Shown piece by piece: positions 1,883 through 31,423 of a stretch of DNA of 31,424 bases. The notes beneath the pieces are model-generated. The model saw only the letters and a list, made by a program, of their open reading frames with translations. It was not told the DNA's origin and made no database searches. A program made the position numbers and the translations under genes. Origin of the DNA: a virus; the IMG/VR virus record IMGVR_UViG_3300021376_000228, positions 1 through 31,424 of that record. One strand, 5' to 3'. The number at the start of each line of letters is the position of its first letter. The stretch's first letter is position 1.

Positions 1883-2058
1883 TAACTAAACTCCTCACCT
1901 CTACGCGAGTTTAGATATTCTAGCACCTCTTGTCTCCATTCAAGGAGTTCATTGTAACACTTTTGATTGTGAGCACACTGTCTCAACTCATGGTCTGGTT
2001 TCAATACACTTTCAATAAAGAGTCCAAGAGCATCCTTGCGTTTCTGTTCTTTGTCCAT
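1882..2058 (-). CDS. small hypothetical protein
   Basis: A 58-residue ORF, read directly from the sequence: MDKEQKRKDALGLFIESVL at the start and LNSRRGEEFS at the end. It fills the gap between two better supported genes, and its TAA overlaps the next ATG by one base, which argues that it is translated. It is charged and helical with two cysteines (RQCAHNQKCY). The ribosome site is weak. No family recognised. Confidence 0.5.
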   Translation of the reverse strand: MDKEQKRKDALGLFIESVLKPDHELRQCAHNQKCYNELLEWRQEVLEYLNSRRGEEFS

Positions 2059-2085
2059 GAGTTGCTTTCAGTTATAGTATTTACA

Positions 2086-2316
2086 CTACTTCTTTTTGGA
2101 CTTTTTGATTTCCTTAAGAATGTAGTTTTTGGCAGCAGTGTAGTTCTGGGCAGTGTGAACTACGGAACCAAAGTTAATGATGGCAAACTTCTTGGAGTTA
2201 ATAATAGGCACTGCTGCCCACATTCCATCCTTTGTCACATAACCTTCTGGGTCTCCTGGTATTGGGTCAAGAATACCAGGACGGTCAATATGTGGTTTGA
2301 GAAACTTTTCGCTCAT
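2086..2316 (-). CDS. small hypothetical protein
   Basis: A 76-residue protein starting MSEKFLKPHIDRPGILDPIP and ending in a lysine-rich tail (LKEIKKSKKK). The middle holds short strand-like stretches (WAAVPIINSKKFAIINFGSVV). It starts in an ATGA overlap with the stop of the 47-residue gene upstream, so the two are probably translated together. The basic tail could bind nucleic acid, but this is only an inference. No family recognised. Confidence 0.55.
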   Translation of the reverse strand: MSEKFLKPHIDRPGILDPIPGDPEGYVTKDGMWAAVPIINSKKFAIINFGSVVHTAQNYTAAKNYILKEIKKSKKK

Positions 2317-2456
2317 CCAAATACCGCAGTAACACCCATAACTTTAGCACTTGGATTGCGTGCCAGAGCAGTTCGCTTGGCATCTTCATAGTCTCGTGCT
2401 TCTACGATCTCATTGAAGACCTTGCCAGCGACATAGAGTTGGACTTTGCAGCGCAT
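2313..2456 (-). CDS. very small conserved-looking protein
   Basis: A 47-residue ORF starting MRCKVQLYVAGKVFNEIVEA and containing ARDYEDAKRTALARNPSAKV. The strand-helix layout and the ARDYEDA..TALARNP motif resemble tiny cyanomyovirus proteins I remember, none with a known role. An AAGGA ribosome site precedes the ATG and an extended -10 promoter lies just upstream. It is therefore the first gene of the left-hand string of small genes. The stop overlaps the next start as ATGA. Confidence 0.6.
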   Translation of the reverse strand: MRCKVQLYVAGKVFNEIVEARDYEDAKRTALARNPSAKVMGVTAVFG

Positions 2457-2481
2457 TGTGGTTTCCTTTGATTACTTTAGT

Positions 2482-2490
2482 ATTATATCA
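2482..2490 (-). promoter_or_regulatory. extended -10 promoter for the small-gene string
   Basis: On the minus strand this reads TGATATAAT, a consensus extended -10 element. No -35 box is visible 17 bases upstream. Transcription would start about ten bases before the AAGGA ribosome site of the gene starting at 2456 and could serve all the small genes to the left. Confidence 0.5.
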
Positions 2491-2515
2491 GAGTTGGGAT
2501 GGTGTGGGGGCAGAG

Positions 2516-2526
2516 TGTGCCAGTTT
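2516..2526 (-). repeat. 11-base repeat at end of helicase gene (copy 1)
   Basis: Minus strand AAACTGGCACA, beginning at the last base of the helicase stop codon. The same 11 bases straddle the stop codon of the large helicase at 6000-6010. Here GGCA..TGCC (2509-2521) can form a short hairpin. Confidence 0.5.
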
Positions 2527-3707
2527 CAGCGGCGGACCACTGAAATGGCAGGTTGACCCTGACGGAACACGGTGTCTACCACCGCCTGAACGCTCTTGGC
2601 GGTGCTGATACCCACCTTATCGTAGACAGGCACGCAAACCAGACCAAAGGTCTTCTGGGCGCTTCCTAGGCGGATCACACGCCCAATGCTCTGGGAGATA
2701 CCAATGTAGTCCATATTCCGCATAAACAACACTGCCTCCAGACCTTGAACGTTGATGCCTTCAGACAGAATGCTATGGTGCAGCACCACAAACTTCTTGG
2801 CATCATCACGACCCCAAGCGTTGAGAGTGTCGAAGAACACCTCACGATCCACTTTCTTACCATCAATCACGGCACCAGTCTTGGCGGTGATATACATCCA
2901 AGAATAACCGCGATCCTTAAGGTCAGAGCAGAAGTCAGATTGTGATACCAGATTGACGATCTGTTTGGTAGAACGAGCACAAATCAGAACCTTACCCAGA
3001 CCATTATCGTCAATAGTCTCCAGCAGATTAGCAGAGTCACGGTCAGCAATCATCTGCTTATCTTGAACCATCTCAAGTTGCTTCACGACAACTTTAGGCG
3101 GCAATATGTAGCCTTGATCCACCATTTCAGGAGCAGGAACATTGCAGATGACATTGCCATAAACGGCAGCATCATTCATTCCAGGTTTAGAAACAGTGAT
3201 AGAATGCTTTGGAGTGGCAGTAAAGAAATAGCAGCGGTCAGCAGTGGCGGCAAAGTGCTCTGTCGCAGGAAAAAAGTTACGCTGGACGCTGTTGTGTGCC
3301 TCATCAAAGTAAATGATATCAACGTGAATATCTGCCTGCTGAATACGTTGTAGAGAGTTGTAGGTGGTGAAAATCAGTTGGTGCTTATAGGCACGACGGC
3401 ACCAGTTATGAATCTCACTGGGTTTGGTGGTGCTCTGGTGATGAGTCTCACCGCTGTGAACGTGCAGCACAGCAACGTTGGTGATAAACTCAAGGTACTC
3501 GGCAGACAACTGCTCCGCCAGGAGGATGCGGGGTGCCACCACCACAATGGTCTTGGGGGCATCGGACTGAAACTCACGCAGAGCATCAGCAATACCCACA
3601 AGAGTCTTGCCCGAACCAGTGGGCATAATCACCTGCCCCTTGACATACTCAAGCAGAGCATCCAGAGCACGTTGCTGGTGAGGTCGGAGTTGGATCACAG
3701 GTCTCAT
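2526..3707 (-). CDS. superfamily 2 DNA helicase (DEAH type)
   Basis: A 393-residue ATP-dependent helicase/translocase. Visible motifs: a Q-like RPHQQRALDAL near residue 8, Walker A PTGSGKT at 29-35, DEAH at 135-138, FTATP at 162-166, SEGINV near 315 and QSIGRVIRLG at 339-348. These cover both RecA lobes. This is the architecture of restriction-type and UvsW-like helicases, and single-subunit versions are common in cyanomyoviruses. It probably acts on phage DNA in replication or recombination, or with the cassette next to it. It has its own extended -10 promoter, and a terminator separates it from the methyltransferase genes upstream. Its base composition is visibly richer in G and C than the neighbouring cassette. 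Confidence 0.85.
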   Translation of the reverse strand: MRPVIQLRPHQQRALDALLEYVKGQVIMPTGSGKTLVGIADALREFQSDAPKTIVVVAPRILLAEQLSAEYLEFITNVAVLHVHSGETHHQSTTKPSEIHNWCRRAYKHQLIFTTYNSLQRIQQADIHVDIIYFDEAHNSVQRNFFPATEHFAATADRCYFFTATPKHSITVSKPGMNDAAVYGNVICNVPAPEMVDQGYILPPKVVVKQLEMVQDKQMIADRDSANLLETIDDNGLGKVLICARSTKQIVNLVSQSDFCSDLKDRGYSWMYITAKTGAVIDGKKVDREVFFDTLNAWGRDDAKKFVVLHHSILSEGINVQGLEAVLFMRNMDYIGISQSIGRVIRLGSAQKTFGLVCVPVYDKVGISTAKSVQAVVDTVFRQGQPAISVVRR

Positions 3708-3720
3708 CGCGTATGGGACT

Positions 3721-3729
3721 ATTATAGCA
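3721..3729 (-). promoter_or_regulatory. extended -10 promoter for the 393-residue helicase
   Basis: Minus strand TGCTATAAT. It follows directly on the poly-T of a stem-loop terminator, and transcription would begin just before the helicase ATG at 3707. The 15 bases TATTATAGCAGAAAA (plus strand, 3720-3734) recur exactly at 8314-8328. There is no -35 match. Confidence 0.55.
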
Positions 3730-3730
3730 G

Positions 3731-3753
3731 AAAAAGGGGTCCCGTAGGACCCC
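3731..3753 (-). terminator. Rho-independent terminator after the methyltransferase genes
   Basis: The minus strand forms GGGGTCC-TACG-GGACCCC, a perfect 7-bp GC-rich stem with a four-base loop, followed at once by five T residues. It lies eight bases past the stop codon at 3762 and would end transcription of the cassette coming from 8279. Confidence 0.8.
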
Positions 3754-3761
3754 CTGCGCCA

Positions 3762-4163
3762 CTAAAAGAACTGTTCCACCCCGACGGGTTCCCCAAACGA
3801 ATAATCATATGTAAGTGCATCATGGCACACATAATGGGGATGGTCAACGGATACTCCCACCCTTTCACACAATTCTTTATGATTATCTTCCATCAACTCA
3901 ACAGCATAAACCATGTGATCAACTACATGTCGTCTCTCATGATACTCTGAGAGCTTATTTATCAAAGCAATAATAAAATTGCCACATCCAGCAGAGTTAT
4001 CAAGAAAAGAGGATGTAGGATTTTTTAAAATATCTTCTGGAATTTCAGAAACCATCTCGGAACATAGTTCTGCGGGAGTAAAAACCTCACCAGTTTCACT
4101 AATTCTTTCATTGGATCTTTCAATATTTGATCCAACCAATTCATTGTGTTTATTCTTACTCAT
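3762..4163 (-). CDS. N6-adenine DNA methyltransferase fragment carrying the SAM-binding motifs only
   Basis: A 133-residue protein that matches only the N-terminal half of an N6-adenine methyltransferase. TGEVFTP at 24-30 is the usual motif before the SAM fold. DNSAGCGNF at 55-63 is the SAM-binding motif I, AVEL at 87-90 is motif II and HDALTYD near 119 resembles motif III. The catalytic NPPY/F motif IV is absent and the protein stops soon after motif III. In HsdM or Eco57I-type enzymes these motifs and NPPY lie on one chain. Here NPPY-type motifs are on the two genes transcribed just before it; its start overlaps the previous gene by eight bases. It may be a subunit of a split enzyme or a decayed remnant; the clean ends and coupling favour the former. 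Confidence 0.7.
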   Translation of the reverse strand: MSKNKHNELVGSNIERSNERISETGEVFTPAELCSEMVSEIPEDILKNPTSSFLDNSAGCGNFIIALINKLSEYHERRHVVDHMVYAVELMEDNHKELCERVGVSVDHPHYVCHDALTYDYSFGEPVGVEQFF

Positions 4164-4878
4164 TGGTATAAATCTCCACTATTTCTGGTTTGCTGATGTG
4201 AAATCTACCATTACATCCTGCTGCTTTACTTCGAAACTTTGGTTCAAGAGAAACCAATTTATCAATTACAGATTGATCATTAGCAAGGATAAAGTAATGA
4301 CCCTTAGCATAATGTGTAAAGTTTTCTGTTTTTACCCTACCAGAAGGACCACACCCATACTCACCAATAAACACATTGGCACGGAATCTATCTTCATATC
4401 GCAGAAACTCAAAATCATCATGTGTTCTGGATTTTTCAACCTTTTTACGTGGTTTATCGGTTTTGATCCATTTTTGTTTAACAGCACGAATACCATTAGG
4501 AAAGGTACTCTCTGGAAGAACTAGAGATTCTTCAATTTCAAAATCCAATCGCACTTTGTTTTGCACCGAGTCCTTCTCAAAAGAACGTGGAAGAACCATC
4601 CAAACATTATCGGAGAGATCACCTGCCTTATTCACAAACTTAATTGCAAGATTGGCACCAGCACCATAAGGTGGATTACCAATAACAATATCAAAGCGCA
4701 TGGTCCTATCCGATTGAAAATACTGAGTTTTGGTTATACAATTATAACCTATTTTTTGATAATAGTCACTATATGCTTCTAGGCAATCAACAACAGTTAC
4801 ATCTCCCTTAAGTGATGCTCTAGCAATTTCTTGTTTAACACCTTGATCTGGTTCTTTGGCGAGATAAAGAATTTTCAT
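4156..4878 (-). CDS. methyltransferase-like protein with NPPY motif
   Basis: A 240-residue protein. Its N-terminal 70 residues (MKILYLAKEPDQGV..., VVDCLEAYSDYY, GYNCI.K, TMRFDIVIGNPPY) closely match the start of the next gene upstream. NPPY at 68-71 is the catalytic motif IV of N6-adenine or N4-cytosine methyltransferases. A standard glycine-rich SAM motif I is not seen; the VVDCL segment may be a degenerate version. After NPPY it keeps a WMVLPRSF strand, then a basic segment (KWIKTDKPRKKVEKSR). It overlaps the upstream gene by ATGA and the downstream one by eight bases, so all three are translated as a coupled unit. It may need the 133-residue protein to supply SAM binding. Specificity is unknown. 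Confidence 0.7.
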   Translation of the reverse strand: MKILYLAKEPDQGVKQEIARASLKGDVTVVDCLEAYSDYYQKIGYNCITKTQYFQSDRTMRFDIVIGNPPYGAGANLAIKFVNKAGDLSDNVWMVLPRSFEKDSVQNKVRLDFEIEESLVLPESTFPNGIRAVKQKWIKTDKPRKKVEKSRTHDDFEFLRYEDRFRANVFIGEYGCGPSGRVKTENFTHYAKGHYFILANDQSVIDKLVSLEPKFRSKAAGCNGRFHISKPEIVEIYTNE

Positions 4879-5957
4879 AGTTGAGATTTTATGTAAGAGA
4901 GTTGATCTTCAGAAAGAACTTCTTCAATAGGAGCATTGGGAAATCTAGTGAGAATTGCTGTCGAGATTCTACCAGAAATTCTGATCTGTTCAATGATCCA
5001 TCTATAAATTGGATCGTCCAAAACTTTCTTTGCTTTTAATGCATCTTCCTCAGAATCAAAAAACTGAACATCACAACTTTGATCGGAAACCATAATATCA
5101 GAAACTATGATTTCATATTTGAAAGGAGATCCCATATGAGGAATCATCATTTTCCAGATCCCATGTGTAGTCCATTTCACCTTTCCGTATTTGATTTTAC
5201 CATTAGAGTTATATGGATACGGATATTCTTTTGTTTTTACTGTTCTATAATCCTTAGATATTTCATCTGCTTCTGATTTTGAGTACCCTCTTTTTTGTAA
5301 GAGTTTTGAAACAGATACCACTCTTGCAGCATCTTTGATCGAAATATTAAATTTTTCCCTATTCGAATCAAAAAGAGTTTGAATAATATCTTGAAAATTA
5401 TGATCGTTATAAATTTTGAGAGTTTTATCAGTATTTACAGAAATATTTCGATCAATAACGCACTGATTATTGGTAGTTATACTATTTTTTGCTGTCCAAT
5501 GACAGACTTTAATTCCAATGGAAGAAAAGTGATTATTTACATTAGTACTAACTTTTACCAAATCAAGTTGACGTTCTGGTCCGAGAACAATCTTACTAAA
5601 GGCATCTCCACCATTTAAAATATTAGTAGGGGTAATAAGACTTATTGTTCCTCCAGGTTTTAATAGAGTAATACTTTTTTGTGCAATTTTCCACCAGAGA
5701 GCACCAGTTCCAGATCCAGAAAGATCTCCATTGCCATTATTTGATTGAAAGGGAGGGTTACCTATAACAAAATCAAAACGCATAGTTCCATCCAATTCAA
5801 AAAATTTTATTTTACTTATACAATTATAACCTTTTTTCTTATAAAAGTCACCATAAGCACCTAAACAATCAACTACAATAACCTCTCCAGAAATTCTAGA
5901 GAGGTCATTAAGAACACCAAGATCGGGTTCCTTGGCAAGATAGAGAGTTCTTTTCAT
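4875..5957 (-). CDS. Eco57I-like DNA methyltransferase with NPPF motif
   Basis: A 360-residue protein with NPPF at 67-70 preceded by TMRFDFVIG. It is followed by the typical ALWWKIAQKSITLLKPGG and ISLITPTNIL, the layout of the Eco57I/TaqI methyltransferase catalytic region. The C-terminal half (KTKEYPYPYNSNGKIKYG...) resembles the target-recognition part of such enzymes. The N-terminus starts at MKRTLYLAKEPDLGV and lacks a clear SAM motif I. The first 70 residues are about 60% identical to those of the next gene downstream, pointing to duplication. The start has no ribosome site, and a TATAAT only seven bases before the ATG would make any transcript from it leaderless. It most likely methylates adenine with help from a partner. 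Confidence 0.75.
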   Translation of the reverse strand: MKRTLYLAKEPDLGVLNDLSRISGEVIVVDCLGAYGDFYKKKGYNCISKIKFFELDGTMRFDFVIGNPPFQSNNGNGDLSGSGTGALWWKIAQKSITLLKPGGTISLITPTNILNGGDAFSKIVLGPERQLDLVKVSTNVNNHFSSIGIKVCHWTAKNSITTNNQCVIDRNISVNTDKTLKIYNDHNFQDIIQTLFDSNREKFNISIKDAARVVSVSKLLQKRGYSKSEADEISKDYRTVKTKEYPYPYNSNGKIKYGKVKWTTHGIWKMMIPHMGSPFKYEIIVSDIMVSDQSCDVQFFDSEEDALKAKKVLDDPIYRWIIEQIRISGRISTAILTRFPNAPIEEVLSEDQLSYIKSQL

Positions 5958-5999
5958 GAAAAATATTATAGAACACTCATCACATAAACGAGAGCACCC

Positions 6000-6010
6000 T
6001 GTGCCAGTTT
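6000..6010 (-). repeat. 11-base repeat at end of helicase gene (copy 2)
   Basis: Minus strand AAACTGGCACA straddling the stop codon of the 756-residue gene, identical to 2516-2526. GGCAC-AGG-GTGCT can form a small hairpin just after the stop. Confidence 0.5.
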
Positions 6011-8279
6011 ACAAATTGAACAGATTCAAAGTAGAGTGCTTACTGGTGCTGCTAACAAAATTGTCCTGTGCATCAAATTGGTCTGCCTTCATAATAATCA
6101 TGTCCATAAACTTAGTCGGTAGATATTGATAAACATGATCAAGAACAGTTCTTGCATCAACACCAACCAACTTTTTGTATTCTGAGTTTTTATCCACATC
6201 ATTAGCAATATTTTCCAAACAATCTTTGAAATTACTGCTGTAGGGAGACATGTAGTAGGTGTTTGCAGAAGTTTCTACAATCGTATTGACCTTCTTAATA
6301 AGATCAACAATTGCTTTATTTTCTGGACTGATCTTTTTTTCTTTTCCGTTTCCAGTCTCGATGAAAGAAATTGCTTTTTCAATTACACCTTTCCACTCTT
6401 TCTTATTATCTTTGCCAGAATTCTTGGTGGAAATATTACGAAGCATCTCTCGAAGATCAATATTACTGATCAACCCCTCAACATCGATCTGAGCAGATGC
6501 CATATTGCTCAGATTTTCCTTAGAAGTAATGTACTCTAAAAAATCAGTTTCTGTCAAGTTCATCAAATAACCTTCCTCATCCTTCTTGAGGAAATCCATG
6601 AGACCATACACTCTGCGAATAGCAGAATCAGTGTCTGAAGAATTGGTACTAATCGCAGAAGAAATCAAGTCTGTCAAGAAAGAAGAGGTTTTTTCTGGAT
6701 TGAAAGAATACTTCACAACCAACCCAACATCCTTGCCACAACCAGGAGTAAAGCAGCGAGATGCTTCCTGAACAGCAGTTCCGATGGATCCACCATCTTT
6801 GCAATCAACCACAGCAATAATATTGGGTACTGAGAATGAACGAGCACCCATAGAGCAGGAAACAATCACAGTCCTCTCACCACCATTTGCAATAATTTCC
6901 TTTACTGCATCTTCAGCAATTCGATTGGTATAACTGTCACCATGTAGAGCGATCCAATTATAGTGTGGTGCAATCTGCTTGCCAATGGTAACAATGTTGT
7001 CAACGTCCTTTTTAGTTCCAGGAATAAACATCATCGCAGCAGGATGTTCAATAGGAGTGTACTTAGTATTATACAATCCAAAGATATCCGTATTGAATTG
7101 TTCATCGAAGAAAAGGGTACGAAGAACTTTACGGATGATATGAGAATTTCTCTTACCAAAGATTTTCGTCATATTGGGACGGTCCTTATCAAGCAGTTGG
7201 TTCAATTCCTCTACAAGTTCACTATCAACTTCAAGAGTGAGACAGGCAATCTCTACAATATCAGACAGAGAATTCATCCAATAAGATTGATTATCATAGC
7301 AGATACCTCCTGGTTCGAACAAGAAACCATGTCCATGCTTTGCTTCAAGTAGGTCAAGATATGAAAACACAATAGGATCTTGAATTTCACCCTTAGAACC
7401 AATCAATGCACGGTCAATATTCGTGCCAGTGGCAATACAAACCAGATTGTTTCCACCTTCAACGAAAGGATGAATATTATTCCGAGACCTGTTTCTCCAG
7501 GCACCATAATCTGCCTCATCAACATAGATGAGTTTGTTTAGATTGGACAGATAGTTAATGAGATCTCCATCGACTTTTTCCGCATCTTGGTGAAGTGAAA
7601 CGTCAATGATGACTCTCTTTCCTTTCTCAAGGGCATTCTTAAGTGCTTCAAGATCTGGTTTGATGATAGATACGTCAGAAACAATGTCATATGCTTGAAA
7701 CACTGCTTTTTCAAAGGATTCGTTTGCTGCCAACCAATAAGAAGCAACTACCATGACGTCAAGACCAGATTCTTTAAAGAGAGAAAGTGCCTGAAACGTC
7801 TTACCACAACGAGGACAAAGATACAGAGGCACGATAGTAGTCGACTGACCATTATACATGCTGAGAATCTTTTGATTCACCCATACTTGATGGGGACGGG
7901 GATTGAAAATATTAGAAAAAGGACGAATACCAGTTCTACGGCACTCTAGACAGTTTTCAATAGACTTCTTGAGATTAGAAACACACTCTTCATGAGTTTC
8001 TCCAGAGACTTTAAAGAGTTCTGGAGAGCGAGAACGACCCAGTTTCTTAAGATCAAGAATACCGTCCTTACGAATCCATTCATGATAGGGATGGTCCGTA
8101 TCACCACAAATATCATAAAACTCAACCCGCTCAACAAGATAGGGTAGTTTACGATACTCTGCGTCCTTACGCCAACGATCATAGGGATCTCTACCATCAA
8201 ATGTCATACCAACGTGAAAAATGTTGAATTCGTTGGTAGTGCCAATGTAAAGGATATTGCTCTTGAGGAGTGATGTCAT
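6009..8279 (-). CDS. GIY-YIG-type nuclease domain fused to SF2 helicase
   Basis: A 756-residue protein. Residues 8-110 fit the T5orf172/MUG113 branch of the GIY-YIG family: ILYIGTTNEF, then FHVGMT, an arginine-bearing helix (DPYDRWRKDAEY), HEWI and SPELFKVSGE, which supplies the usual conserved glutamate. An SF2 helicase core follows, with PRPHQ near 128, Walker A CPRCGKT at 155-161, VDEAD at 253-257, CIATGT at 281-286, SMGARSFSVPNI at 476-487 and QEASRCF at 504-510. A helical C-terminal region of about 200 residues is unassigned. A nuclease-translocase chain next to methyltransferase genes suggests a restriction-like subunit. It is the first gene of the cassette, with a promoter and terminator-like stem-loop just upstream. 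Catalytic activity is inferred. Confidence 0.75.
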   Translation of the reverse strand: MTSLLKSNILYIGTTNEFNIFHVGMTFDGRDPYDRWRKDAEYRKLPYLVERVEFYDICGDTDHPYHEWIRKDGILDLKKLGRSRSPELFKVSGETHEECVSNLKKSIENCLECRRTGIRPFSNIFNPRPHQVWVNQKILSMYNGQSTTIVPLYLCPRCGKTFQALSLFKESGLDVMVVASYWLAANESFEKAVFQAYDIVSDVSIIKPDLEALKNALEKGKRVIIDVSLHQDAEKVDGDLINYLSNLNKLIYVDEADYGAWRNRSRNNIHPFVEGGNNLVCIATGTNIDRALIGSKGEIQDPIVFSYLDLLEAKHGHGFLFEPGGICYDNQSYWMNSLSDIVEIACLTLEVDSELVEELNQLLDKDRPNMTKIFGKRNSHIIRKVLRTLFFDEQFNTDIFGLYNTKYTPIEHPAAMMFIPGTKKDVDNIVTIGKQIAPHYNWIALHGDSYTNRIAEDAVKEIIANGGERTVIVSCSMGARSFSVPNIIAVVDCKDGGSIGTAVQEASRCFTPGCGKDVGLVVKYSFNPEKTSSFLTDLISSAISTNSSDTDSAIRRVYGLMDFLKKDEEGYLMNLTETDFLEYITSKENLSNMASAQIDVEGLISNIDLREMLRNISTKNSGKDNKKEWKGVIEKAISFIETGNGKEKKISPENKAIVDLIKKVNTIVETSANTYYMSPYSSNFKDCLENIANDVDKNSEYKKLVGVDARTVLDHVYQYLPTKFMDMIIMKADQFDAQDNFVSSTSKHSTLNLFNL

Positions 8280-8314
8280 GATAAATGAGTCTTCTAGGAA
8301 TTCAGAATAGAGTT

Positions 8315-8323
8315 ATTATAGCA
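8315..8323 (-). promoter_or_regulatory. extended -10 promoter for the nuclease-methyltransferase cassette
   Basis: Minus strand TGCTATAAT, an extended -10 box 35 bases before the ATG at 8279. It sits directly after a stem-loop and T tract and shares 15 identical bases (8314-8328) with the promoter at the other end of the cassette. No -35 box. Confidence 0.6.
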
Positions 8324-8326
8324 GAA

Positions 8327-8349
8327 AAGGAACCCTTGTGAGGTTTCTT
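8327..8349 (-). terminator. weak stem-loop terminator between tail fibre gene and cassette
   Basis: Minus strand AAGAAACC-loop-GGTTCCTT forms an 8-bp stem with one mismatch (A opposite C), followed by TT then CTG. It lies about 80 bases past the stop of the fibre gene. On the plus strand the mismatch becomes a G-U pair. It is weaker than the terminator at 3731-3753 but occupies the same position relative to a promoter. The surrounding gap (8280-8430) contains nothing else I can identify. Confidence 0.45.
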
Positions 8350-15795: not shown

Positions 15796-15879
15796 TAGGA
15801 CGAGGGGGACTTGAACCCCCACGAGGTTACCCTCAACAGATTTTAAGTCTGGTGTGTCTACCACTTCCACCACCGTCCC
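15796..15879 (-). tRNA. tRNA-Leu (anticodon UAA)
   Basis: An 84-base cloverleaf on the minus strand. The acceptor GGGACGG pairs with TCGTCCT (two G-U pairs), the anticodon loop is CTTAAAA with UAA at positions 34-36, and the T arm is GGGGG-TTCAAGT-CCCCC. The long variable arm (TTGAGGGTAACCTCG) is diagnostic for leucine. CCA is not encoded. It reads UUA and UUG codons, which are frequent in these AT-rich genes. Confidence 0.9.
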
Positions 15880-15884
15880 TTAGG

Positions 15885-15957
15885 TGCCCGTTGTGAGGAT
15901 TGAACTCACCTCCCATCGATTATGAGTCGATTGCATTCACCAGATTGCTAAACGGGC
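15885..15957 (-). tRNA. tRNA with CAU anticodon (Met, or Ile2 after lysidine modification)
   Basis: A 73-base cloverleaf on the minus strand. The acceptor GCCCGTT pairs with AACGGGC, the anticodon arm is ATCGA-CTCATAA-TCGAT and the T arm is GTGAG-TTCAATC-CTCAC. It lacks the mismatched first pair of initiator tRNA, so it is an elongator Met or an Ile2 tRNA. The D stem is short (GCA/TGC), and sequence alone does not settle the identity. Only two bases separate it from tRNA-Ile and five from tRNA-Leu, so the three are cut from one transcript. Confidence 0.85.
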
Positions 15958-15959
15958 AA

Positions 15960-16031
15960 TAGGAATGTCGGGAATTGAACCCGATTCACTCCGTTATAAG
16001 CAGAGGGCCTTAACCATTAGGCGACATTCCC
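15960..16031 (-). tRNA. tRNA-Ile (anticodon UAU)
   Basis: A 72-base cloverleaf on the minus strand. The acceptor GGGAATG pairs with CATTCCT, the D arm is GCC..GGC, the anticodon arm is CTCTG-CTTATAA-CGGAG (one G-U pair) with anticodon UAU, and the T arm is TCGGG-TTCAATT-CCCGA. It reads AUA, a codon that is rare in many bacteria but present in the phage genes. Its first three bases also belong to an inverted repeat that extends into the antitoxin gene. Confidence 0.85.
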
Positions 16032-30517: not shown

Positions 30518-31165
30518 ATGGGATACTTTAGAGAACTTCCAAATTTACTTTATCCTTCTTATCTGTCTGATAAGAACTCATCTCTTAACTATATCGAGGT
30601 CAAAAATCTCTTCCGTAGAGTTAAATTAAGAGATGATCTTCAGAATGTTTTTACTATCTTCAATAAATATGAGATCCCAGAAGGATCAAGACCAGAACTT
30701 GTTGCCGAAGAATTTTATGGTGATGCCCAACTAGATTGGGTGGTCCTTCTAACCGCAGGAATTATCAATGTGCGAGATGAATGGCCATTGTCAGATCGAG
30801 ATCTCTACAGATATTGCTACGAGAAATATGATACTGATCTAAACGAAACTCGTCACTATGAAACCACTCAAGTAAAAGATTCGAATGGTCGTTTAATTCT
30901 TCCAGCAGGTAAAGTTGTTGATGGTAATTTCACAATTCCAAATCCTGCTAATCCTTTACTAAGTCTAAATCCAGTTATTGGTATTAGTAACTATGAATAT
31001 GAAGTTCGTAAGAATGATAAAAAGAGAAGCATTTATCTATTAAAACCATCATATCTCCAACAGTTCTTAAATGATATGAGACAAATTATGATTTATGATG
31101 AGTCTTCTCAATACATCAACGAAAAGTATATTCAAACTGAGAATCTAAACATCACTCTTCCATAA
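30518..31165 (+). CDS. 53: gp53-like baseplate wedge protein
   Basis: A 215-residue protein matching T4 gp53 (196 residues): MGYFRELPNLLYPSYLSDKN, NLFRRVKLRDDLQNVFTIFN, YEIPEGSRPELVAEEFYGDA, DWVVLLTAGIINVRDEWPLS and the C-terminal KRSIYLLKPSYLQQFLNDMR. It joins neighbouring wedges around the hub during baseplate assembly. It starts two bases after the gp48 stop. Its last 21 bases overlap the end of the Mom-like gene on the opposite strand. Confidence 0.9.
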   Translation: MGYFRELPNLLYPSYLSDKNSSLNYIEVKNLFRRVKLRDDLQNVFTIFNKYEIPEGSRPELVAEEFYGDAQLDWVVLLTAGIINVRDEWPLSDRDLYRYCYEKYDTDLNETRHYETTQVKDSNGRLILPAGKVVDGNFTIPNPANPLLSLNPVIGISNYEYEVRKNDKKRSIYLLKPSYLQQFLNDMRQIMIYDESSQYINEKYIQTENLNITLP

Positions 31166-31423
31166 GAGTTCTAGTTTCTTATCAAACACCATTACATATC
31201 GGTGCTTGCGCGAGCGATCTTTCCATTCACCTTCAAATCCCTTAATTTTGCCTCTAGAGTGTTTAGTTCCGTCTGCATAGTAGAAATCTTTCTTTGGGTC
31301 TGAAAGTCCGCAATATTTAAAATTACAAGCGCGATAGATTGTACCATTATGGAAATCACTATCAGCGTAAGAGATGATTGCTTTAACTTCAGTATCCTTC
31401 CGTAACTGTCTAATCGCTCTTGA
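31145..31423 (-). CDS. Mom-like DNA adenine modification protein, partial (N-terminus off the right edge)
   Basis: The C-terminal 92 residues of a protein whose ending matches the Mom family of GNAT-fold adenine-modifying proteins: AIISYADSDFHNGTIYRACN, FKYCGL, DGTKHSRG, and RSRKHRYVMVFDKK near the end. The YAD...H.GTIY.A.NF.Y.G and basic RKHRYV blocks are the family's hallmarks. Mu Mom adds a carbamoylmethyl-type group to adenine, which protects phage DNA from restriction. The start is outside the window. It converges on gp53 with a 21-base overlap and no terminator between them. Confidence 0.7.
   Translation of the reverse strand, partial: SRAIRQLRKDTEVKAIISYADSDFHNGTIYRACNFKYCGLSDPKKDFYYADGTKHSRGKIKGFEGEWKDRSRKHRYVMVFDKKLELLWKSDV

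What the first reader, a model, noticed from the sequence alone, without database searches (positions are those of the whole stretch)
3762..8279. Self-contained restriction-modification-like cassette in a tail-gene neighbourhood
Four genes form one unit: a GIY-YIG domain fused to an SF2 helicase, an NPPF methyltransferase, an NPPY methyltransferase-like protein and a SAM-motif protein. They are bounded by an upstream promoter and a strong downstream terminator. The last three overlap by 4 and 8 bases. A nuclease-translocase with methyltransferase subunits is the composition of restriction or restriction-like defence, yet the subunit layout does not match Type I, III or ISP enzymes that I know. 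Carried by a lytic phage it could protect its own DNA, attack host or rival phage DNA, or counter host defences.
Basis: partly seen in the sequence, partly recalled or inferred. Interest (0 to 1): 0.85.

Follow-up and report, generated by a model that had tools for sequence, protein, structure and literature searches.

The report
Phage restriction system with split methyltransferase
A marine cyanobacterial virus carries what looks like a cut-or-spare DNA system whose methyl-transferring enzyme is broken into two proteins, a constant co-factor-binding half and exchangeable target-reading halves, and comparison with about 200 relatives shows that nature mixes and matches these parts around the constant half.

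Summary
D (3762-4163) is not a small extra methyltransferase: it is the SAM-binding half (motifs X, I-III; strands beta1-3) of an Eco57I/CamA-type m6A methyltransferase, ending where motif IV begins. B and C carry motif IV plus target recognition, each behind a ~58-aa degenerate SAM-half remnant. A is an SF2 translocase with a GIY-YIG-like N-domain.

Across cyanophages D is near-constant (median 68% identity) while its motif-IV partner varies (27%). Nearly every D with enough sequence has such a partner nearby, but restriction modules change: GIY-YIG/SF2, another SF2 family, fused, or none. The remnant type tracks the restriction module; the recognition half is exchanged between modules exactly at the motif-IV boundary, where a Met codon is conserved. 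In bacterial relatives that codon has a strong Shine-Dalgarno, suggesting a second, remnant-free product that pairs with D. Single-chain and permuted fusions, and three-gene D-R-motif-IV operons in Actinobacteria, support the split.

Best reading: a phage-borne, ATP-dependent, Type ISP-like restriction-modification system in split, modular form. No prior description was found in the open-access library; REBASE was not available.

The parts
6009..8279 (-). Gene A: restriction module, GIY-YIG-like N-domain + SF2 (helicase-fold) translocase + C-terminal helical region, 756 aa
7944..8279 (-). GIY-YIG-like nuclease domain of A (residues ~1-112; Y11 and E87 invariant among the 8 relatives of A2, E87 also in the 25 of A4)
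   Evidence: AlphaFold order beta-beta-alpha-beta-alpha-beta-alpha at pLDDT 41-65
6522..7922 (-). SF2 two-RecA-lobe translocase of A (residues ~120-586; PRCGKT, DEAD, QxxSR)
   Evidence: VIA Z 21.9 to RadD, 19.8 to LlaBIII 4xqk; Foldseek rank 1 LlaBIII
4875..5957 (-). Gene B: motif-IV (NPPF)/target-recognition half of a split m6A methyltransferase, 360 aa
   Evidence: Pfam Eco57I 1.7e-11, phrog_3689
5784..5957 (-). 58-aa N-terminal extension of B: degenerate SAM-half remnant of the class that goes with A-type restriction modules ('AKEP')
   Evidence: 14 of 14 A-type partners carry this class
5781..5783 (-). Candidate internal start codon (ATG) of B just before motif IV; short product 302 aa
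   Evidence: Met at this position in 55/62 phage genes; best Shine-Dalgarno of 10 in-frame candidates; translation not shown
4156..4878 (-). Gene C: second motif-IV (NPPY)/target-recognition half, 240 aa
   Evidence: Pfam Eco57I 1e-5, phrog_5172; orphan homologue PSSM2_036 starts at motif IV
4702..4878 (-). 59-aa N-terminal extension of C (degenerate SAM-half remnant, 'AKEP' class)
   Evidence: 55% identical to that of B; class matches A
4699..4701 (-). Candidate internal start codon (ATG) of C; short product 181 aa, the size of orphan NPPY proteins
   Evidence: rank 4 of 8
3762..4163 (-). Gene D: constant SAM-binding half (motifs X, I, II, III) of the split methyltransferase, 133 aa
   Evidence: motif-I-only ORF in all 80 viral-contig copies and all 10 cyanophage-record copies; profile hits CamA N-terminus; equals residues ~8-133 of the single-chain relative L208
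3975..4001 (-). SAM motif I DNSAGCGNF of D
8315..8342 (-). Promoter-like site upstream of A (extended -10, TGCTATAAT)
   Evidence: consensus match only
3734..3755 (-). Intrinsic-terminator-like hairpin after D (GGGGTCC-tacg-GGACCCC + T5)

Best explanation
A phage-borne, ATP-dependent, Type ISP-like restriction-modification system in split, modular form. D binds S-adenosylmethionine and completes the catalytic Rossmann domain in trans with the motif-IV/recognition half of B or C; the pair methylates adenine at the motif read by B (or C), marking phage DNA. A, a GIY-YIG nuclease on an SF2 translocase, docks to B and/or C through their N-terminal remnant and translocates on and cuts DNA lacking the mark. 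Because the recognition half is a cartridge joined at the motif-IV boundary and D is generic, specificity changes without re-evolving catalysis. Most likely use: excluding or destroying rival phage DNA (the diversifying recognition halves fit a contest with other phages), possibly also host chromosome breakdown. SHOWN BY COMPUTATION: the halves, their complementarity in relatives, the constant/variable pattern, the exchange at the motif-IV boundary, the match of remnant to restriction module. INFERRED: m6A activity, SAM binding, nuclease and translocase activity, remnant-A contact, biological target.
For: (1) D is always a motif-I-only ORF in the phage loci and aligns to the N-half of intact methyltransferases: L208 is one chain D(8-133)-NPPY(131), whose model (pLDDT 92-98 over the D half) puts beta1-3 in the D part and beta4-7 in the motif-IV part and matches CamA (VIA Z 21.0), HsdM, LlaGI and M.TaqI. 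(2) Permuted single-chain fusions (motif IV .. D) exist in L161 and in Aeromonas T4-like phages PX29 and ZPAH1, in the same order as the C-D genes here. (3) Of 91 D genes in phage loci, 62 have a motif-IV gene within 60 nt upstream, 17 within 1 kb, 9 run off the contig, and 2 of the remaining 3 have it downstream. (4) D median identity 0.68 against 0.27 for partner halves over 1871 locus pairs. (5) D tree: the label 'A-type module' needs at least 7 changes on well-supported branches; window D groups (100/99) with D genes serving another module class. (6) Remnant class matches module class (A 14/14, RTG 3/3, R708 15/16, the exception being an orphan second NPP gene) while recognition halves cross classes (L081 vs L085: 82%, remnants unalignable). 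(7) Bacterial chromosomes, mostly Actinobacteria: 21 of 80 loci have D - R (T5orf172-like + SF2, ~1100 aa) - motif-IV gene. (8) A matches LlaBIII and EcoR124I HsdR.
Against: The remnants of B and C keep E-P-x-x-G, so their own SAM binding cannot be excluded, and freshwater relatives pair an apparently intact methyltransferase (own motif I) with a separate D, so D could be more than a replacement half there. GIY-YIG in window A has no direct Pfam hit and the model of that domain is poor. No complex could be modelled. Nothing shows that the phage DNA is methylated or that A is expressed. The contest with rival phages rests on the pattern of variation only.
Confidence: 0.68

Rival explanations
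1. B and C are complete, self-sufficient methyltransferases using a variant motif I (E-P-x-x-G) in their own N-terminal extension; D is an accessory or regulatory SAM-domain protein.
For: The extensions have the strand-helix spacing of a Rossmann N-half; freshwater relatives have methyltransferases with canonical internal motif I plus a separate D.
Against: Orphan NPPY genes (P-SSM2 type) and actinobacterial motif-IV genes have no N-half at all yet keep D; D keeps motifs X and I intact across all classes; the extensions follow the restriction module, not the recognition half.
Confidence: 0.15
2. The cassette is kept mainly for modification (self-protection against host restriction); the restriction module is a passenger.
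For: Many cyanophages, P-SSM2 included, keep D + NPPY without any restriction module (of 12 orphan-type loci 9 have none despite enough sequence, 2 are on short contigs, 1 has one).
Against: A keeps all SF2 motifs and many invariant residues over 40-60% divergence; several kinds of restriction module recur next to D with repeated changes on the D tree; bacterial chromosomes keep R in the same operon.
Confidence: 0.2
3. The restriction module chiefly degrades the unmarked host chromosome to feed phage replication, as proposed for chlorovirus restriction enzymes, rather than rival phages.
For: Precedent: chlorovirus virion-packaged restriction enzymes are thought to degrade host chromatin, and were not responsible for mutual exclusion of viruses (PMC7019647).
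Against: Host degradation would not require the recognition half to diversify, which it does strongly.
Confidence: 0.25
4. The GIY-YIG-like domain makes this a homing or mobile-element module rather than restriction.
For: GIY-YIG domains are common in phage homing endonucleases (established knowledge); the cassette differs between relatives that share flanks (L060).
Against: The domain is fused to a translocase and co-occurs with methyltransferase halves in phages and in bacterial operons; exchange happens inside genes at the motif-IV boundary, not at gene ends.
Confidence: 0.04

Closest known systems
Type ISP restriction-modification enzymes (LlaGI, LlaBIII)
   Same: Nuclease + SF2 translocase + gamma-type adenine methyltransferase with its recognition domain; best structural match of A and among the matches of the methyltransferase model.
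   Different: LlaGI/LlaBIII are one polypeptide; here four genes, the methyltransferase itself is cut between beta3 and beta4, and the nuclease domain is GIY-YIG-like, not the Mrr-like domain of those enzymes (the latter from established knowledge).
PADLOC REase_MTase_IIG model PDLC03626 (1359 aa)
   Same: Bacterial relatives of R and of the motif-IV half match different parts of this fused-chain family; D matches it weakly.
   Different: The model is a single chain that includes the SAM half; window A gives no PADLOC hit.
Type I restriction-modification (HsdR/HsdM/HsdS)
   Same: Separate translocase subunit and exchangeable specificity; HsdM fold for the methyltransferase, HsdR for A.
   Different: No HsdS with two target domains; specificity exchange happens inside the methyltransferase fold, not in a separate S subunit.
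CamA / M.TaqI / Eco57I-type adenine methyltransferases
   Same: Sequence and fold of the joined halves.
   Different: Those are single chains with both halves.
Chlorovirus-encoded restriction-modification
   Same: Virus-encoded methyltransferase with companion nuclease (PMC7019647).
   Different: Small Type II enzymes, no translocase, no split methyltransferase; eukaryotic host.

Membership tests
gamma-type (Eco57I/N6_Mtase) adenine-N6 DNA methyltransferase | SAM motif I (D/N/E-x-x-x-G-x-G-x-F) and upstream F-T-P (motif X) present | tested here: met
   In D, nearly invariant over 16 diverse D proteins; but in a separate polypeptide
gamma-type (Eco57I/N6_Mtase) adenine-N6 DNA methyltransferase | Motif IV (N-P-P-Y/F) with Eco57I domain | tested here: met
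   B 1.7e-11, C 1e-5, both above the Pfam cut-off
gamma-type (Eco57I/N6_Mtase) adenine-N6 DNA methyltransferase | Both halves form one Rossmann fold | tested here: inconclusive
   Shown by model for the single-chain relative L208; the window's D with B or C could not be modelled together
Type ISP restriction-modification | Nuclease, SF2 translocase, methyltransferase and recognition domain in one polypeptide | tested here: not met
   Four separate ORFs; partial fusions in relatives (A-B in L030, L047) leave D separate
Type ISP restriction-modification | SF2 translocase core like LlaBIII | tested here: met
   Foldseek rank 1, E 1.8e-10; VIA Z 19.8, rmsd 5.1 over 397 residues
Type I restriction-modification | HsdS subunit with two target-recognition domains | tested here: not met
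   No HsdS-like family in the four proteins or the neighbouring ORFs scanned
Type III restriction-modification | Mod (single-chain methyltransferase) + Res with C-terminal nuclease | tested here: not met
   Catalytic halves are on separate genes; the nuclease-like domain is N-terminal in A
GIY-YIG nuclease superfamily | T5orf172/GIY-YIG domain above curated cut-off | tested here: inconclusive
   No hit for window A; met for relatives L047 and L068 (21.5 and 21.1 vs 20 bits) and for the split system of Klebsiella phage KpV477 (LEM-3 GIY-YIG 1.9e-15); window domain linked by profile comparison through intermediates
Restriction-modification (any type) | Modification protects DNA from cleavage by the cognate nuclease | not testable with these tools
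   needs protein or virion DNA

The most novel reading that the evidence does not exclude
One gene makes two specificity subunits: the full-length motif-IV protein, whose remnant docks to the translocase-nuclease (restriction form), and a short protein started at the conserved internal ATG before motif IV, which joins the constant D subunit (modification form). A single D serves several interchangeable recognition cartridges, so a phage can gain a new restriction specificity with its matching methylation by one recombination at the motif-IV boundary.
Probability: 0.35. Interest if true: 0.93.

Novelty: new variant of a known kind. Interest (0 to 1): 0.8.

Why it matters
A methyltransferase cut at the beta3/beta4 junction into a constant co-factor half and interchangeable recognition halves would be a natural plug-in specificity system: change the cartridge and both cutting and protection change together. 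It would explain how marine phages carry and diversify restriction systems, and would offer a modular tool for making new methylation and cleavage specificities. The same architecture in actinobacterial and Streptococcus/Lactobacillus chromosomes suggests a restriction family that is now filed as separate 'N-6 DNA methylase' and 'Eco57I domain' genes. The internal-start signal makes a clear, cheap prediction.

Tried and rejected
Pattern scan of viral contigs with protein A alone found no relative; the alignment-based scan did. Scan with the Klebsiella phage D found nothing. Modelling the permuted fusion L161 was dropped because MAFFT misplaced the partial rows; the linear single-chain L208 was used instead. 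Direct profile comparison of the window-type N-domain with the T5orf172 class failed (0.1%), and with the single Klebsiella GIY-YIG sequence too (2%); the link runs through intermediate classes. A as a member of any PADLOC or PHROG family: no hit. An Acb1 (anti-CBASS) hit of D (0.0038, below cut-off) was discarded as chance in favour of the methyltransferase evidence. The VIA comparison of A hardly tested the N-domain (rows span 120-586), so absence of a nuclease match there means nothing. H (2526-3707) was considered as part of the cassette and left out: it has its own promoter-like site after the terminator and accompanies D genes of every class. The ~190-aa ORF of the Bellamy-type loci was taken for a PD-(D/E)XK nuclease by eye only (GIDG..QxKxK); Pfam gives no hit. 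One family scan failed on wrong coordinates and was not repeated because a BLAST comparison answered the question. Literature: ten searches of the open-access library found no description of a split methyltransferase of this kind or of this cassette; subscription journals and REBASE were not searched.
Full report
OBSERVATION. The window is a 31,424-b IMG/VR virus record, a T4-like marine cyanophage fragment by its fibre matches to Prochlorococcus phage P-SSM2. They are bounded by an extended -10 promoter-like site and a G+C-rich hairpin with T-run, and B, C and D are under strong purifying selection (dN/dS 0.05-0.06).

WHAT D IS. Pfam and PHROGs see only a weak methyltransferase N-terminus in D (N6_Mtase 0.0017; phrog_4376, function unknown, over its full length). 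D holds motif X (E-V-F-T-P), motif I (D-N-S-A-G-C-G-N-F), II and III and stops. All 80 copies in the viral contigs fetched by D and all 10 copies in cyanophage records are motif-I-only ORFs. Its profile finds the N-terminus of the adenine methyltransferase CamA in the PDB (E 0.009). The motif-IV region (NPPF/NPPY, Eco57I) is in B and C. Joined natural versions exist: L208, one 413-aa chain with D at 8-133 and NPPY at 131; L161 and Aeromonas phage genes (PX29 gp083, ZPAH1 orf67), single chains in the permuted order motif IV .. D. The L208 model (pLDDT 92-98 in the D part) is a methyltransferase Rossmann fold in which D contributes beta1-3 and the motif-IV part beta4-7; the best PDB matches are CamA (Z 21.0, 337 residues, rmsd 5.4), HsdM, LlaGI, BsaXI and M.TaqI. 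So the cut lies between beta3 and beta4.

CONSTANT AND VARIABLE HALVES. Over 1871 locus pairs D identity has median 0.68, the motif-IV half 0.27. Of 91 D genes, 62 have a motif-IV gene within 60 nt upstream and 17 within 1 kb; 9 run off the contig; of the other three, two (ACG-2014f) have it downstream and one has only 670 nt of upstream sequence. Restriction modules differ: A-type; a second SF2 family ('AKCRAGKS', ~708 aa); fused module-motif-IV chains of ~1000-1180 aa; an H-like helicase with a ~190-aa ORF carrying a GIDG..QxKxK signature seen by eye (no Pfam hit); a GIY-YIG-like domain fused straight to NPPY (413-486 aa); or none, as in P-SSM2. On the D tree the A label needs at least 7 changes on well-supported branches and the window's D groups (100/99) with D genes that serve the other SF2 family (23 of the labels are unknown and the tree has few columns). 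Related phages with the same flanks carry different cassettes (L060 vs window: H 97% identical in protein, flank DNA 80%, different restriction gene).

THE REMNANT TRACKS THE RESTRICTION MODULE. B and C begin with ~58 aa of strand-helix-strand sequence ('LYLAKEPDxGV...VVDC...') before motif IV. This region falls into classes: 'KEP' with A-type modules (14/14), 'GDPxG' with the 708-aa family (11 by pattern, 4 more by eye, the sixteenth being an orphan second NPP without remnant), 'NALSG' with a third family (3/3). The motif-IV/recognition half does not follow: L081 (708-aa module) and L085 (A-type) share 82% identity after the boundary and nothing alignable before it; window B and L081 67%. Exchange therefore occurs at the beta3/beta4 boundary. 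In freshwater relatives the same region is longer and keeps motif I in varying states of decay, alongside a separate D, which suggests decay of an ancestral cis SAM half as D took over (inference).

INTERNAL START. Just before motif IV a Met codon is conserved (exactly at -8 from N-P-P in 55 of 62 phage genes, within -12..-7 in 61), the place where remnant-free genes start. In bacterial D-linked genes this codon is ATG, GTG (7 of 7 Val) or TTG in 33 of 38; upstream of the ATG cases there is a Shine-Dalgarno (mean -7.2 kcal/mol vs -2.6 for random codons, p 6e-11), and the site is in the top tenth of in-frame start codons in 27 of 33. Eco57I methyltransferases without a detected D in the same genomes have a start-type codon there in 3 of 19, SD -4.0 vs -8.8 in the D-linked set (rows are not phylogenetically independent, and 10 of the 20 D-linked rows were assigned because the fetched piece was short). 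In cyanophages the SD signal is weak (35% vs 15% under -5, p 0.046), as it is for the true starts of D. For the window: B -5.5 (best of 10), C -3.5. I read this as probable internal initiation in the bacterial genes and possible in the phage genes; a relic of gene fusion is the alternative.

WHAT A IS. SF2 core with LlaBIII (Type ISP) as Foldseek's first match and EcoR124I HsdR next; VIA Z 21.9 RadD, 19.8 LlaBIII. The N-domain has no Pfam hit in this protein; relatives with the same translocase carry a Pfam T5orf172 domain, N-domains of two subtypes are exchanged on the same translocase, and profile links tie the window's subtype to them through intermediates. Bacterial R proteins of the D-R-motif-IV operons show a T5orf172-like sequence by eye (Y-S-W...W-E-K-I-G-Y-T...R-I-x-Q-Q...F-H...E-W). 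I call it GIY-YIG-like, probable. Some distant A relatives stand beside a Mom-family DNA-modification protein instead of a methyltransferase, again a pairing with a DNA-modifying enzyme.

MECHANISM. D + motif-IV half = methyltransferase (m6A inferred from family); A + full-length B/C through the remnant = restriction complex (inferred from the remnant-module match and from the fused A-B chains L030 and L047); cleavage of unmarked DNA after translocation (inferred from Type ISP/I kinship). Diversifying recognition halves favour rival DNA as target; chloroviruses offer the precedent that host DNA can be the target (PMC7019647).

NOVELTY. No description found in ten open-access searches; subscription literature and REBASE not seen. 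The ingredients are known; the split at motif IV, the constant half, the cartridge exchange and the remnant-module rule look new. Graded as a new variant of restriction-modification.

Noticed in passing
L128:5518-9282 (also L127, L132, L134, L135, L136; diverged L137, L145, L156): Distant A relatives (~25% identity) sit directly before a ~290-aa protein (unknown) and a Mom-family protein (Pfam Mom 4.5e-19; BLAST): a restriction-type translocase paired with Mom-type adenine modification instead of a methyltransferase. The ~290-aa protein reads by eye like a motif-IV half that has lost NPPY.
   Followed up: partly
window 31145-31423 (-), open at the record end: Partial ORF 53% identical over 96 columns (E 1e-26) to those Mom-family proteins: the window phage probably carries its own Mom-like modification gene.
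   Followed up: no
window 3720-3733 and 8314-8327 (-): Exact 14-mer repeat TTTCTGCTATAATA upstream of A and right after the terminator of D (before H): the same extended -10 element at both ends of the cassette, a possible exchange or promoter module.
   Followed up: partly
L112, L130, L131, L140-L142, L144, L146-L150, L152, L154, L155; L002:4320-6627: A is recurrently split into ~300-400 and ~410-490 aa ORFs, apparently between the two RecA lobes, in many contigs.
   Followed up: no
L143:3311-8489: Four tandem paralogous methyltransferases with nearly identical N-halves and differing sequence after motif IV.
   Followed up: no
L001 (S-CAM7 KU686212): Two D genes in one phage, one after a restriction module + NPP gene and one after an NPPY gene.
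   Followed up: no
between D and H: L060:6455-7744, L007:6906-8294, L012:1780-2802: Different ORFs inserted between D and the downstream helicase H in relatives: an insertion hotspot; the P-SSM2 one ends in a weak DpnI_C (Dam-replacing HTH) hit.
   Followed up: no
window 15796-16031 (-): Cluster of tRNA-Leu(taa), tRNA-Met(cat), tRNA-Ile(tat).
   Followed up: no
window 2000-4000: G+C rises to 0.47-0.48 from ~0.37 over H and the end of D.
   Followed up: no
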